A stretch of 64,000 nucleotides of DNA, taken from NCBI GenBank assembly GCA_026709935.1, contig JAPOSC010000064.1, forward strand, positions 24,761 through 88,760, read 5' to 3'. The stretch is from Thiotrichales bacterium (lineage in GTDB: Bacteria; Pseudomonadota; Gammaproteobacteria; HK1). Below the pieces are notes generated by a model that was not told the DNA's origin, did not search any database, and was given only the letters and a program-made list of their open reading frames with translations. Positions 19,106-22,588 of this stretch are shown piece after piece. Position 1 is the stretch's first letter. Each line of letters begins with the position of its first letter. The position numbers and the translations under genes were made by a program.

Positions 19106-20035
19106 ATGTGCTCGGTATGCGGTTGCAACGATGTCGGTGCCGACGGTCATGCTCACGTTGAACCCACCGGCCATCATCGCGTCCACACGCATCGTCACCA
19201 TCACGCCCACACCGAGGCTGGCGACACCGAGGCTGGCGACACCGGGTCTGGCGACGGACATCGGCATGTCCACGGCCACGACCATTACGGGACAGGACCG
19301 GCCGGACTCACCGTGCCGGGATTCACTCAGGCGCGCCTGATCGAAATCGAGCAGGACATTCTCTCCCGGAACGATGCGGACGCTGCCGCCAACCGGCGGC
19401 GGCTGACCGAGCGGGGGGTGCTCGCGCTCAACCTGATGTCGAGCCCGGGGGGCGGCAAGACCACCCTGCTCGTCGAGACCATCGAGGCCCTGAAGGGCAC
19501 GCTCGCGATCGGGGTGGTGGAAGGGGATCAGGAGACCAGCAACGACGCAGAGCGCATCAGGGCGTGCGCGGTGCCGGCGGTGCAGATCAATACCGGCCGC
19601 GGCTGTCATCTGGATGCGCACATGGTCGGACACGCGCTGGACGACCTGCCGCTCGCGCCGGGCGGCGTGGTGTTCATCGAGAACGTGGGCAATCTGGTGT
19701 GCCCGGCCGCCTTCGACCTCGGCGAAGCCTGCAAGGTGGTTATCCTCTCGGTCACCGAAGGCGAAGACAAGCCGCTCAAGTACCCCGACATGTTCGCGGC
19801 AGCCGACCTCATGCTGCTCGGCAAGACGGATCTCCTGCCGCACGTGGACTTCGATCCGGAGCGGGCGCTGGGGTACGCCCGACGGGTGAACCCGACCATC
19901 GCCGAGATCCGTCTCTCCGCCCGCAGCGGAGAGGGCATGGCGGCGTGGCTGGACTGGATTCTCGCCCGAGCCCGGAAGGCGGCGAAGGGTGCCGTCTCCA
20001 GTGTCCCCTCGCACGACGCTCCCGCTCATGCATGA
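19106..20035 (+). CDS. hypB: Nickel-chaperone GTPase HypB-like
   Basis: This is a HypB-family GTPase, 309 residues, that delivers nickel to a target metalloenzyme. The N terminus MCSVCGC is the high-affinity CxxCGC metal site. It is followed by a His-rich stretch (residues 15-60, with some 16 His) that can store nickel. The G domain starts with the P-loop MSSPGGGKTTLL (about 111-122), then VVEGDQETSNDAERI, the metal-site motif NTGRGCHLDA, and VGNLVCPA. Start ATG at 19106 has a perfect GGAGG seven bases upstream. It overlaps hypA by eight bases and heads the hypB-hypA-ureohydrolase cluster. No hydrogenase genes are present, so its client is most likely the ureohydrolase downstream. Such HypB/HypA relatives serve the nickel-dependent guanidine and metformin hydrolases. 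Confidence 0.93.
   Translation: MCSVCGCNDVGADGHAHVEPTGHHRVHTHRHHHAHTEAGDTEAGDTGSGDGHRHVHGHDHYGTGPAGLTVPGFTQARLIEIEQDILSRNDADAAANRRRLTERGVLALNLMSSPGGGKTTLLVETIEALKGTLAIGVVEGDQETSNDAERIRACAVPAVQINTGRGCHLDAHMVGHALDDLPLAPGGVVFIENVGNLVCPAAFDLGEACKVVILSVTEGEDKPLKYPDMFAAADLMLLGKTDLLPHVDFDPERALGYARRVNPTIAEIRLSARSGEGMAAWLDWILARARKAAKGAVSSVPSHDAPAHA
19211..19255 (+). repeat. Three 15-bp tandem repeats inside hypB
   Basis: Two identical units ACCGAGGCTGGCGAC and a third with two changes encode TEAGD-TEAGD-TGSGD (residues 36-50). They form a flexible spacer between two His-rich clusters. Confidence 0.9.
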
Positions 20036-20399
20036 GCTCGCGCTGGCCCGGAGTCTCATCGAGATGGTCGACGACTACGCGCTCGCACACGGCGCGCGGC
20101 GGGTCACGCGGGTGCACGTGCGGCTCGGAGTGCAGTCGGCCCTGACCCGCGCCTTGCACGTGAGCTTTCGGGCCGCTTCGAGGGGCACGCGCTGCGACGG
20201 GGCGACGCTCGACATCGAGGTAATCCCGCTGACCGTCCACTGCCGCCTCTGCGACGGCGTGAAGACACCGAGCGGACCCTGGAACTTTCGCTGCCCCGAC
20301 TGCGGCCGCGCGACGCACGAGATCGTGACGGGACGCGAGATGCAACTCGCCGCCATCGTGCTCGGGAATGACGGCGGCGCCGCCACCCACCCCGGGTAA
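20028..20399 (+). CDS. hypA: Nickel-insertion protein HypA-like
   Basis: HypA-family proteins hand nickel to the apo-enzyme together with HypB. The 123-residue product starts MHELALARSLIEMVDDYA, with the conserved nickel-binding His2 in the M-H-E motif. A zinc-ribbon carries CRLCDG and FRCPDCG pairs, the usual CxxC...CxxC structural zinc site. The start ATG at 20028 overlaps the hypB stop by eight bases, so the two are translationally coupled. A longer frame from 19989 is rejected because the nickel-binding N terminus must be free. The next gene starts 20 bases later. In this context it should be an accessory protein of the ureohydrolase complex rather than of a hydrogenase. Confidence 0.92.
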   Translation: MHELALARSLIEMVDDYALAHGARRVTRVHVRLGVQSALTRALHVSFRAASRGTRCDGATLDIEVIPLTVHCRLCDGVKTPSGPWNFRCPDCGRATHEIVTGREMQLAAIVLGNDGGAATHPG

Positions 20400-20419
20400 T
20401 ACACTGAAGGCCGAATGCA

Positions 20420-21499
20420 ATGGGAGTCCAGCCCGAAAATCCGTGGTCCTTCGTCCCTCATCAGCACCGGGGACCTCATCAGGAGTGCGATCCGGAAGCC
20501 CACACCCGTTCCCCCACCCGGCACAACGCCTCGTTCAAGTCGGCGGGGATCATGACCTTCATGGGCGCTCCCTACTGCCCGCCGGAACGGGACCGGATCC
20601 GCGAGATGGGCGCCAGGGTCTGCTTCCTCGGTGCTCCCTGGGATCTCGGCACCATCGTACGCACCGGCACCTCCAGCGGCCCCCAGGGCATACGGGAAGC
20701 CTCCACCCAGTACTTCCCCTACATGTTCGAGTATGACGTCGATCTGATGACCTTCTTTCGCGTCATCGACTGCGGCGACGTTCCCAACGTGCCCGGCAAC
20801 AACGAGCTGTCGCAGCAGTACATCTGCGACTATGTGGGCGAATGCCTGGAAGGTGGGGCCAAGGTCATCCTGGTGGGAGGTGACCATTCCGTACCGATCC
20901 CGGGCGCCTGCGCGCTCTCGCAATACCTTGCCCGGCACCGGCCCGGGGCGAAGATGGGCTACCTGCATATCGATTGTCACCTTGATGCCGCGGTCGACTG
21001 GGGTGGCAACGAGCTCACCAACGCGTCCGGGCCACCCATGGCTCTGAAGCTCCCCAACTGCAACGGCGAGAACATGGCCCACCTGGGGTCGCGCAACGGA
21101 CTCAACCCGAAGGACTGGATGGACTTCTGGATCGACAACCGCATCCCGGTGATCCCCATGACGGAGGTAGTCGAGCGCGGGATCGACGCCTGTGCCCGGG
21201 ACATCTTCGAGCGCGCCGCGAACGGAACCGAAGCCATCTACTGCTCCTGGGACACGGACTCGATGGACCATAGCTGCATGCCGGGCACCTCCTGCCCGGA
21301 GAGCTTTGGAATCAAGGCGCGCGAGGCGCTGCAGATTGCACGTATCGCCGGCGAGTACGGGGTGGACGTGCTGGAACTCGCGGAGCTCGCTCCGGTATTC
21401 GATACCAGTCAGATCAGCACCAAGCTGGCCTGCAACCTCGTCTACCACTACCTGGGAAGTCGGGCCGCGACGCTACGCGCTCGCAACGAGGCTCCGTAG
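20420..21499 (+). CDS. Ureohydrolase, predicted catalytic alpha subunit of a Ni-dependent guanidine-compound hydrolase
   Basis: This 359-residue protein belongs to the arginase/agmatinase (ureohydrolase) superfamily, which hydrolyses guanidinium groups with two bound metals. All six ligand positions are intact: H156 in GGDHS, D185, H187 and D189 in IDCHLDA, D278 and D280 in SWDTDSMD. The usual Ala of the DAHxD motif is Cys here, and the usual Pro after the third Asp of the last motif is absent. A 45-residue N-terminal extension precedes the core. It lies 20 bases after hypA and is followed by a ligand-poor paralogue. That set (hypB, hypA, intact plus degenerate ureohydrolase) matches the heteromeric Ni2+ dimethylguanidine/metformin hydrolases, in which only the alpha subunit binds metal. 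The substrate is inferred; N,N-dimethylguanidine or guanidine are the leading guesses. Agmatinase is less likely. Confidence 0.85.
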   Translation: MGVQPENPWSFVPHQHRGPHQECDPEAHTRSPTRHNASFKSAGIMTFMGAPYCPPERDRIREMGARVCFLGAPWDLGTIVRTGTSSGPQGIREASTQYFPYMFEYDVDLMTFFRVIDCGDVPNVPGNNELSQQYICDYVGECLEGGAKVILVGGDHSVPIPGACALSQYLARHRPGAKMGYLHIDCHLDAAVDWGGNELTNASGPPMALKLPNCNGENMAHLGSRNGLNPKDWMDFWIDNRIPVIPMTEVVERGIDACARDIFERAANGTEAIYCSWDTDSMDHSCMPGTSCPESFGIKAREALQIARIAGEYGVDVLELAELAPVFDTSQISTKLACNLVYHYLGSRAATLRARNEAP

Positions 21500-21538
21500 G
21501 CTTCCGCGCCTGCCGAACCATCACCGGGAGTCCGGTTC

Positions 21539-22588
21539 ATGAACCCTGCCAAGGCATTCGCCCACCTGTTTTCGCCGCTTGCGGACGAGGACGCCGACAA
21601 CTACCGCAACCCGGGACAGATCTCGTTCCTGCGAGCGCCCTTCGTCCCCATCGACAGTGCCGAGCTGCGGGAAGTCGACGCGGAGTACGCGTTCATCGGC
21701 GTGCCCTTCGACGAGGGCAACGTCGGGAAGCCGGGCTGCGAGGACGGCCCCCGCGAGTTCCGGGTCGCCTCCCTCGACTACTTTCCCTACTGGTTCGAGT
21801 TCAACGTGGACCTGCACGGCTGCGCCGTCGACTGCGGCGACGTCTCCATGCCGAGGGTGAATCCCGCGCTCGCCCGGGAACGCATCTACGAGGCGGTGCG
21901 GACCGCGCTGGAGGCCGGCTTCAATCCGATCATCTGCGGCGGCGATCGGTCGATCTCCATTCCCGCGTCCAGAGCGCTCTCCGATCATCTGGGGCAGGAC
22001 CGGCGAATGGGCTACCTGCATCTCGGGGCCCATCTGGACTTCGCCGATCGGTGGGCCGGCGAGTCTCACGTCAGCACCTGCGCCATGGCGCGCATCACGG
22101 AACTCGGCAATCTCGATCCCGGCAACGTCGCCCACATCGGAGCCCGCAACTCCTTCAACCCCAGAGACCACGTGGATCTCGCGAAGGACCGCGGCGTCCG
22201 GTTCCACCCCATGCTTGAAGTGCTCGAACGCGGTGTCGACGAGGTTCTGGACGAGGTGGTGGCCAGGGTGTGGAGCGGCACCGACGGGCAGTACCTGAGC
22301 TTCAACTTCAACGTCATGGATTCCTCGTGCGCGCCGGGGGTGACCGCCACCGAGCCCGGCGGCCTGGAGGCGCGCGAGATCATGCGGGTCGCGGCGAGGA
22401 TCGCCGATGCCGGAGGACCGACGGTCATCGACGTGTCCGAGCTGTGCCCGATGTTCGACGTGAGCGGCTCGACCTCGCGCATGGCGGTCTGCGTCGTACT
22501 CCGGATCCTGGCCGGCGTCGCGCGCCACAACGGAAAGACTCTGGACGATTCCCTGCGCCGGCCCGGTTGGCGGCACGGGCAACGGTAG
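21539..22588 (+). CDS. Degenerate ureohydrolase paralogue, predicted non-catalytic beta subunit
   Basis: This 349-residue ureohydrolase homologue clearly shares the fold and surrounding motifs of the previous gene (YFPYWFEFNVDLHGCAVDCGD; AHIGARNSFNPRD). Four of the six metal ligands are replaced: R137 for His in GGDRS, G163 for Asp in HLGAHLD, and N256 and N258 for Asp in SFNFNVMD. Only H165 and D167 remain, so it should not hold a dinuclear metal site. The frame is intact, codon use looks like its neighbours', and ATG at 21539 has GGGAG eight bases upstream, so it is not a pseudogene. The simplest reading is a structural or regulatory partner of the upstream subunit, as in the alpha2-beta4 metformin hydrolase. 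It is the last gene of the operon, facing an EamA gene. Confidence 0.85.
   Translation: MNPAKAFAHLFSPLADEDADNYRNPGQISFLRAPFVPIDSAELREVDAEYAFIGVPFDEGNVGKPGCEDGPREFRVASLDYFPYWFEFNVDLHGCAVDCGDVSMPRVNPALARERIYEAVRTALEAGFNPIICGGDRSISIPASRALSDHLGQDRRMGYLHLGAHLDFADRWAGESHVSTCAMARITELGNLDPGNVAHIGARNSFNPRDHVDLAKDRGVRFHPMLEVLERGVDEVLDEVVARVWSGTDGQYLSFNFNVMDSSCAPGVTATEPGGLEAREIMRVAARIADAGGPTVIDVSELCPMFDVSGSTSRMAVCVVLRILAGVARHNGKTLDDSLRRPGWRHGQR

What the first reader, a model, noticed from the sequence alone, without database searches (positions are those of the whole stretch)
19106..22588. Heteromeric nickel-dependent guanidine-compound hydrolase operon (hypB-hypA-alpha-beta)
Two adjacent ureohydrolases follow HypB and HypA metal chaperones with overlaps or gaps of at most 40 bases. 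The first keeps all six ligands (H156, D185, H187, D189, D278, D280), while the second has R137, G163, N256 and N258 at four of these positions. No hydrogenase or urease is present to need HypAB. Known precedents are the Ni2+ guanidine hydrolase GdmH with HypA/HypB-like accessory proteins, and the metformin/dimethylguanidine hydrolases, heterohexamers in which only alpha binds nickel. The intact frame of the degenerate paralogue argues for a retained partner. Substrate identity (dimethylguanidine, methylguanidine, guanidine, other) is open, so this could be a new member.
Basis: partly seen in the sequence, partly recalled or inferred. Interest (0 to 1): 0.93.

Follow-up and report, generated by a model that had tools for sequence, protein, structure and literature searches.

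The report
Nickel-dependent two-subunit guanidine-compound hydrolase operon
This bacterial DNA carries a four-gene operon, next to genes resembling a polyamine importer, whose two paired subunits likely form a nickel enzyme predicted to split a still unknown small guanidine-type compound; they belong to a distinct branch of the enzyme family that includes the drug-degrading metformin hydrolase.

Summary
Observation confirmed. hypB (19106-20035), hypA (20028-20399), alpha (20420-21499) and beta (21539-22588) lie head to tail. Alpha keeps all six metal ligands; beta lost four. They match metformin hydrolase subunits A and B over full length (222/355 and 210/348 identities), far above GdmH or agmatinase. 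Searches of the genome found no urease, no NiFe hydrogenase, no close GdmH and one HypA (this one), so HypAB likely serve this pair. Beta is as constrained as alpha (dN/dS 0.07, 0.09). A heteromeric nickel ureohydrolase is therefore very likely. New here: alpha and beta fall in a fully supported clade outside the DmgH/MefH clade, with its own pocket signature (T at MefH Q80, C at 290: 39 of 39 rows, 0 of 82 others) and a PotD-type importer gene beside it (window and 13 of 13 testable loci; 0 of 18 others). DmgH/MefH loci mostly carry a CodB-type permease, a third untested group mostly another ABC permease. Pocket and transporter change together, so the substrate is likely not metformin and perhaps not dimethylguanidine; it stays unidentified. 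A pair in print (RsMetCaCb) formed a hexamer without metformin activity; whether it belongs to this clade could not be settled.

The parts
14941..16131 (+). PotD-like extracellular solute-binding protein with twin-arginine signal; likely picks up the substrate
16181..17047 (+). PotB-like permease
   Evidence: BPD_transp_1; best NCBIfam model PotB 182.8 bits, under its cut-off 348
17063..17848 (+). PotC-like permease
   Evidence: BPD_transp_1; best NCBIfam model PotC 162.5 bits, under its cut-off 326
17915..19033 (-). PotA-like ATPase with TOBE_2, divergent from hypB
   Evidence: best NCBIfam model PotA 352.2 bits, under its cut-off 482; ABC_tran and TOBE_2
19106..20035 (+). HypB nickel chaperone GTPase with CxxCGC start and His-rich N-terminus
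   Evidence: TIGR00073 277 bits, cut-off 121.2; translation
20028..20399 (+). HypA nickel metallochaperone, starts Met-His-Glu, two CxxC
   Evidence: PF01155 87.9 bits, cut-off 28.9; TIGR00100 81.3 bits, under 88.1; only HypA found in the genome
20420..21499 (+). alpha: catalytic ureohydrolase subunit with all six metal ligands
   Evidence: PDB metformin hydrolase A E 1.9e-164; ligands H156 D185 H187 D189 D278 D280; pocket T78 C186 T290 S291 C292, W194 N201 E322 kept
21539..22588 (+). beta: degenerate ureohydrolase subunit (R137 G163 N256 N258) with the N-terminal cap
   Evidence: PDB metformin hydrolase B E 1.6e-152; 16 of the first 23 residues identical to MefH beta; dN/dS 0.070

Best explanation
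The window holds a hypB-hypA-alpha-beta operon of the metformin/dimethylguanidine hydrolase family beside PotABCD-like transporter genes, and its alpha and beta proteins likely assemble into a nickel-loaded alpha2beta4 hexamer predicted to cleave an imported small guanidino compound into urea (or a urea derivative) and an amine. Shown here: the gene order, the six ligands of alpha, four lost in beta, membership of both in a clade of their own, the clade's pocket signature, its constant PotD-type neighbour, purifying selection on beta. Inferred from the solved relatives: HypB and HypA load two Ni2+ into alpha; two betas flank each alpha, and the N-terminal arm of beta caps alpha's pocket. Predicted: the PotD-like protein captures the substrate and PotABC imports it. 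Inferred, less sure: the substrate is not metformin and may not be N,N-dimethylguanidine, because the pocket and the transporter both differ from DmgH/MefH; and since neither urease nor a urea carboxylase above cut-off was found in the genome, the amine rather than the urea would be the product that this host uses.
For: Homology: alpha to metformin hydrolase A 550 bits, beta to metformin hydrolase B 511 bits, against 162 and 145 bits for the GdmH chains and 91 and 107 for the best guanidinobutyrase/guanidinopropionase. Trees: careful alpha tree, 53 rows, clade 100/100, stem 0.52, kept in 100% of 200 bootstrap trees, DmgH/MefH clade separate at 100/100; quick tree 132 rows, same clade 41 rows, SH-aLRT 100; beta tree 44 rows, same clade 100/100. 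Alpha and beta distances run together over 27 loci, r 0.89, 0 of 2000 permutations as high. Constraint: window against L001, NG86 dN/dS alpha 0.086, beta 0.070. Dedicated chaperones. Pocket: T at MefH 80 and C at 290 in 39 of 39 clade rows, 0 of 82 others. Transporter: PotD-like gene in 13 of 13 testable clade loci, 0 of 18 others. Urease: 5 of 15 clade genomes, 11 of 13 others. Beta cap: 16 of 23 residues; Y22/F82 in 144 of 149 beta rows. No guanidine riboswitch in the window or in 28 of the fetched loci at Rfam gathering scores. Mechanism of the relatives: PMC11399263 (parts 1-4 of 7 read), PMC11271267 (passages and sections 10, 11).
Against: No activity, metal or oligomer state was measured. 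Most known active-site residues are kept (W192, N199, E320 of MefH; Y22, F82 of beta), and position 184 and 289 match MefH, so a DmgH-like substrate is not excluded. The PotD-type importer link is one clade's habit, so 13 loci are not 13 independent events, and the third group's transporter is not constant (NMT1 binding protein in 5 of 10 loci). L014 and P0024 fall inside the clade but have N80 and T-T-Y and L014 has a LIV-type transporter instead. The plasmid carrying MefH also has a gene annotated as polyamine ABC transporter binding protein 2.4 kb past MefH beta, although it does not match this one. Urease contrast: P 0.009, but 0.09 once four of five near-identical Aminobacter genomes are left out, and the genomes are mostly incomplete MAGs. 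Clustering of diagnostic columns near the pocket is weak (4 of 8, P 0.025). HypA is just under the TIGR00100 cut-off.
Confidence: 0.75

Rival explanations
1. It is simply an N,N-dimethylguanidine hydrolase like DmgH, with a different importer by chance of gene shuffling.
For: About 63% identity to DmgH alpha (223/355); shared W192, N199, E320 and beta cap; a Hyphomicrobium enzyme only 70% identical to DmgH alpha kept that activity (PMC11399263); in print, changing T289 to S in DmgH raised its activity and this clade has S289.
Against: Separate clade; Q80 is T, S184 is C and S-T-S is T-S-C, all residues that line the pocket in the papers; CodB permease and HupE missing, PotD-type importer constant; two genomes carry a clade copy together with a third-group copy (L001+L017, L003+L030), which would be redundant.
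Confidence: 0.3
2. It is a guanidine hydrolase working like GdmH, with beta as a helper.
For: GdmH operons also hold hypA and hypB and an ABC importer (PMC8390497, passages).
Against: GdmH rows are the distant outgroup of the trees; no guanidine riboswitch found in the window or 28 loci, whereas GdmH genes often have one; the importer is PotD-like, not SsuA-like.
Confidence: 0.07
3. It hydrolyses agmatine or another guanidinated polyamine brought in by a polyamine importer.
For: The neighbouring importer has the PotD/PotF fold, a family that binds putrescine, spermidine and agmatine.
Against: Agmatinase model TIGR01230 120.5 bits against a cut-off of 174.3; closed pocket capped by beta in the relatives; two acidic residues of PotD that I recall as holding the far end of the polyamine align with Y and P in all 14 binding proteins.
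Confidence: 0.08
4. Beta is a decaying paralogue and alpha works alone.
For: Four of six ligands are lost in beta.
Against: dN/dS of beta 0.070, lower than alpha's 0.086 and lower than the six other genes of the region compared; the same residues are lost in 149 beta rows with the cap kept; in print alpha of MefH alone is inactive.
Confidence: 0.02

Closest known systems
Metformin hydrolase MefH / MetCaCb / MfmAB (Aminobacter, Pseudomonas plasmids; PDB 8snf, 8snk, 8sp2, 8x3g, 8ryi)
   Same: hypB-hypA-alpha-beta order, six ligands in alpha, degenerate beta, beta N-terminal cap, C at 184 and S at 289
   Different: 63% and 60% identity; T for Q80, T for N288, C for A290; separate clade; PotD-type importer instead of the NCS1/CodB permease; no HupE gene found in the genome
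N,N-dimethylguanidine hydrolase DmgH (Aminobacter niigataensis DSM 7050, L021)
   Same: operon plan and subunit architecture; alpha 223/355, beta 213/348 identities
   Different: pocket S184 and S-T-S against C and T-S-C, Q80 against T; separate clade
Third, untested heteromeric group (Q or N80, C184, T-T-A; L015, L017-L020, L023, L027, L028, L030, L031)
   Same: alpha-beta pair, hypBA in 7 of the 10 loci
   Different: BPD/NMT1-type ABC transporter genes in 8 of 10, type III glutamine-synthetase-like gene in 6 of 10, urease genes in 5 of 10 loci; none of these ureases or transporters in the 13 window-clade loci
Guanidine hydrolase GdmH (PDB 7esr, 7oi1, 9fek)
   Same: nickel ureohydrolase with HypA/HypB-like helpers (PMC8390497 passages)
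   Different: single-gene enzyme; distant in the trees; riboswitch control; SsuA-like importer

Membership tests
Heteromeric Ni ureohydrolases (MefH/DmgH-like alpha-beta pairs) | alpha keeps all six metal ligands | tested here: met
   H156 D185 H187 D189 D278 D280; 121 of 121 alpha rows compared keep all six
Heteromeric Ni ureohydrolases (MefH/DmgH-like alpha-beta pairs) | adjacent beta with three to five ligands replaced | tested here: met
   R137 G163 N256 N258 replaced, H165 D167 kept
Heteromeric Ni ureohydrolases (MefH/DmgH-like alpha-beta pairs) | alpha and beta each group with MefH/DmgH alpha and beta, apart from GdmH | tested here: met
Heteromeric Ni ureohydrolases (MefH/DmgH-like alpha-beta pairs) | hypA and hypB in the operon | tested here: met
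Heteromeric Ni ureohydrolases (MefH/DmgH-like alpha-beta pairs) | beta N-terminal arm that caps alpha's pocket | tested here: met
   by sequence only: 16 of 23 residues identical, Y22 and F82 kept
Heteromeric Ni ureohydrolases (MefH/DmgH-like alpha-beta pairs) | alpha2beta4 hexamer, two Ni2+ per alpha, alpha inactive alone | not testable with these tools
   needs protein
DmgH (dimethylguanidine hydrolase) | specificity residues S184 and S288-T289-S290 | tested here: not met
   C186 and T290-S291-C292
DmgH (dimethylguanidine hydrolase) | falls in the DmgH/MefH clade | tested here: not met
   separate clades, both 100/100
DmgH (dimethylguanidine hydrolase) | hydrolyses N,N-dimethylguanidine | not testable with these tools
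   needs an assay
MefH (metformin hydrolase) | C184 and N288-S289-A290 | tested here: not met
   C186 and S291 agree, T290 and C292 do not
GdmH (guanidine hydrolase) | groups with GdmH | tested here: not met
   GdmH homologues are the outgroup
GdmH (guanidine hydrolase) | guanidine riboswitch upstream | tested here: not met
   none at gathering score in the window; common in but not required for the family
Agmatinase (TIGR01230) | scores above the curated cut-off | tested here: not met
   alpha 120.5 and beta 119 bits, cut-off 174.3

The most novel reading that the evidence does not exclude
The window's clade is a third, transport-coupled kind of heteromeric nickel ureohydrolase that hydrolyses a natural small guanidino cation other than guanidine, dimethylguanidine or metformin; a dedicated PotABCD-type system imports it, and hosts without urease throw away the urea and live on the amine, so the family has diversified by swapping pocket residues and importer together.
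Probability: 0.4. Interest if true: 0.75.

Novelty: new variant of a known kind. Interest (0 to 1): 0.55.

Why it matters
Heteromeric nickel ureohydrolases became known through a drug, metformin, and the natural substrate of the family is still puzzling: the DmgH authors say dimethylguanidine has not yet been found in biological systems (PMC11399263). A natural clade with its own pocket and its own binding protein makes that question directly testable: the PotD-like protein can be screened for its ligand, and the ligand then tried on the enzyme. It also gives context to how metformin hydrolysis arose, since two of the four residues linked to that switch (C184, A290) are already the common state in the untested relatives.

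Tried and rejected
Rejected: agmatinase, guanidinobutyrase and GdmH membership; beta as a pseudogene; HypAB serving a urease, hydrogenase or GdmH elsewhere in the genome (the best GdmH-like match is 35% identical); control by a guanidine riboswitch (loci L022, L024-L026, L040 were not scanned). Considered and left open: whether RsMetCaCb (PMC11271267) belongs to this clade; its sequence is in a supplement that could not be read. The downstream DAO-GcvT dehydrogenase (27232-29691) looked like a possible amine-using partner but is not shared with the related loci in the clustering. A urea carboxylase search gave only partial biotin-enzyme matches under the cut-off, as it does in most control genomes. 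Promoters were not analysed. YN00 rates failed; only NG86 values are given, and synonymous distance to L002 is saturated. A structure of alpha was not predicted and no complex model could be made, so the pocket argument rests on alignment to residues named in the papers. The PotD ligand roles quoted are recalled; a paper search for them gave one listing only. That this clade with its importer has not been described rests on searches of an open-access library only; members may sit unremarked in the published trees. Rows dropped: alpha rows under 325 residues and 15 listed divergent or odd rows, among them L014 and P0024, were left out of the signature count; three near-identical Aminobacter loci were left out of the careful trees and of the 27-locus comparison. 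Protein lists were capped at 120 of 124 (alpha) and 120 of 307 (beta).
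Full report
Observation. HypB and HypA are recognised by HMMs, HypA just under one of its two curated cut-offs. HypB begins CxxCGC and is His-rich, HypA begins Met-His-Glu and has two CxxC pairs (translations; the nickel roles of these motifs are recalled). Alpha carries H156, D185, H187, D189, D278, D280; beta has R137, G163, N256, N258 and keeps H165 and D167.

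What the pair is. Alpha's best solved relative is metformin hydrolase subunit A (550 bits, E 1.9e-164) and beta's is subunit B (511 bits, E 1.6e-152). The nickel guanidine hydrolase chains come far behind (162 bits for alpha, 145 for beta) and guanidinobutyrase and agmatinase further still. Identity in the alignments is 222/355 (alpha) and 210/348 (beta) to the Pseudomonas plasmid MefH, 223/355 and 213/348 to Aminobacter DmgH. In print, MefH and DmgH are Ni2+ enzymes, alpha2beta4 hexamers in which only alpha binds metal, alpha alone is inactive, and their activation depended on co-expressed HypA and HypB (PMC11399263, parts 1-4 of 7 read; PMC11271267, sections 10 and 11 and passages).

Retained partner. 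Of 32 related loci, 30 run past alpha, and 29 of these hold beta (in L017 it lies 1.8 kb away; L018 has none on its 10.8-kb contig). hypA is found in 29 of 32; the three without it (L017, L018, L023) lie in genomes whose other copy has it. Window against L001, beta's dN/dS is 0.070 and alpha's 0.086, the lowest of eight genes compared. Alpha and beta distances over 27 loci correlate at 0.89, reached by 0 of 2000 permutations. The N-terminal 23 residues of beta, which in the crystal structure cap alpha's pocket, agree in 16 places.

Who needs the chaperones. In the 3.78-Mb assembly (95.9% complete) searches found no urease alpha, no NiFe hydrogenase, one HypA (this one), no HupE, no urea carboxylase above its cut-off, and no GdmH-like protein closer than 35%. 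NiFe hydrogenase was over cut-off in 0 of 28 genomes that hold related loci.

A clade of its own. In the quick tree of 132 rows the window's alpha lies in a 41-row clade (SH-aLRT 100, stem 0.55), apart from the 20-row DmgH/MefH clade. The careful tree of 53 rows, rooted on two GdmH-type rows, gives 100/100 for each, and all 200 bootstrap trees keep both. Of these two outgroup rows, L016's was checked against the PDB (GdmH E 1e-126) and L004's groups with it. The beta tree of 44 rows shows the same clade at 100/100.

Pocket. The papers name Q80, C/S184, W192, N199, N288, S289, A290 and E320 of MefH alpha. This clade has T at 80, C at 184, T-S-C (37 rows) or T-T-C (2 rows) at 288-290 in 39 of 39 rows; none of 82 other rows has T at 80 or C at 290. 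W192, N199 and E320 are kept. DmgH has Q80, S184, S-T-S; MefH Q80, C184, N-S-A; a third, untested group mostly Q or N80, C184, T-T-A. Eight columns distinguish the clade, four of them at or next to named pocket residues (P 0.025 against conserved columns): suggestive only. Fragments and 15 divergent rows were left out of this count; two of them, L014 and P0024, lie in the clade but have N80 and T-T-Y.

Importer. A PotD-like binding protein gene stands beside alpha-beta in the window and in 13 of 13 clade loci with enough contig (11 of 13 with all four transporter genes; L007 and L010 end too early), and in none of 18 other loci at the thresholds used (L029 and L032 could not be judged, L014 is counted among the 18 although the tree puts it in the clade). 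In the window and L001 the transporter lies upstream with PotA divergent; in the others it follows beta. A TetR-family gene follows it in 6 of 13. The DmgH/MefH loci have a CodB-type permease in 6 of 7; for metformin that type of gene (MetT) has been shown to be the importer (PMC13390362, abstract). The third group has BPD or NMT1-type ABC genes in 8 of 10 (binding protein in 5), a type III glutamine-synthetase-like gene in 6 of 10 and urease genes in 5 of 10. L014 has a LIV-type transporter upstream of hypB. So the importer tends to change when the pocket changes. Against this: the plasmid with MefH also has an annotated polyamine ABC binding protein 2.4 kb past MefH beta, which does not match this one.

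Fate of urea. Urease was over cut-off in 5 of 15 clade genomes and 11 of 13 others (P 0.009; 0.09 when four of five Aminobacter genomes are dropped). The window's own genome has none. If urea is formed, this host likely does not live on it; the amine would be the useful product. This is inference.

Distribution. The gene is rare: 2 of 55 relatives searched, the window's genome included, and 1 of 369 genomes of the class, the window's own. The second relative is the genome of L001.

Substrate. Guanidine itself is unlikely: no guanidine riboswitch in the window or 28 scanned loci and a long distance from GdmH. Metformin is unlikely: it lacks N288 and A290. For a pair whose alpha is 61.7% identical to MetCa (RsMetCaCb) no metformin activity was detected although it formed a hexamer; it could be of this clade or not. 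N,N-dimethylguanidine remains the leading named rival. I commit to a small guanidino cation taken up by the PotABCD-like system.

Verdict. A real and well-supported heteromeric nickel ureohydrolase operon; kind already known; this is a new variant with an untested substrate.

Noticed in passing
L016:12167-13396: A GdmH homologue (PDB 7esr/9fek, E 1e-126) follows a DmgH-type alpha-beta pair and one hypBA directly, so one chaperone pair may serve two nickel ureohydrolases; a similar gene lies at L004:19318 in a window-clade locus.
   Followed up: partly
L017, L019, L030, L031 (also L020, L023, L027, L028 in part): The untested third group of alpha-beta pairs sits with NMT1-type ABC transporter, type III glutamine-synthetase-like and urease genes, which looks like a catabolic island for a methylated guanidine.
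   Followed up: partly
L014:3270-11522: Divergent clade member with N80 and T-T-Y in the pocket and a LIV-type ABC transporter (Peripla_BP_6, BPD_transp_2) upstream of hypB.
   Followed up: partly
alpha alignment, MefH positions 184 and 290: C184 and A290, two of the four residues linked in print to the DmgH-to-MefH switch, are the common state in the third group, so S or A184 and S290 look derived in the DmgH clade and MefH seems to have partly gone back.
   Followed up: partly
L001+L017, L003+L030, L015+L018, L016+L023: Four genomes carry two alpha copies; in the first two one is of the window's clade and the other of the third group.
   Followed up: partly
L020 and L028 (L028:9349-13750): Genes for a phenol-hydroxylase-like diiron protein, its reductase, a triple RidA-domain protein and a polysaccharide deacetylase lie next to the alpha-beta pair.
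   Followed up: no
window 27232-29691: DAO-FAO_M-GcvT fusion resembling sarcosine or dimethylglycine dehydrogenases, 4.6 kb downstream; not shared with the related loci.
   Followed up: partly
window 2044-2134: tRNA-Ser (gct) gene on the minus strand.
   Followed up: no
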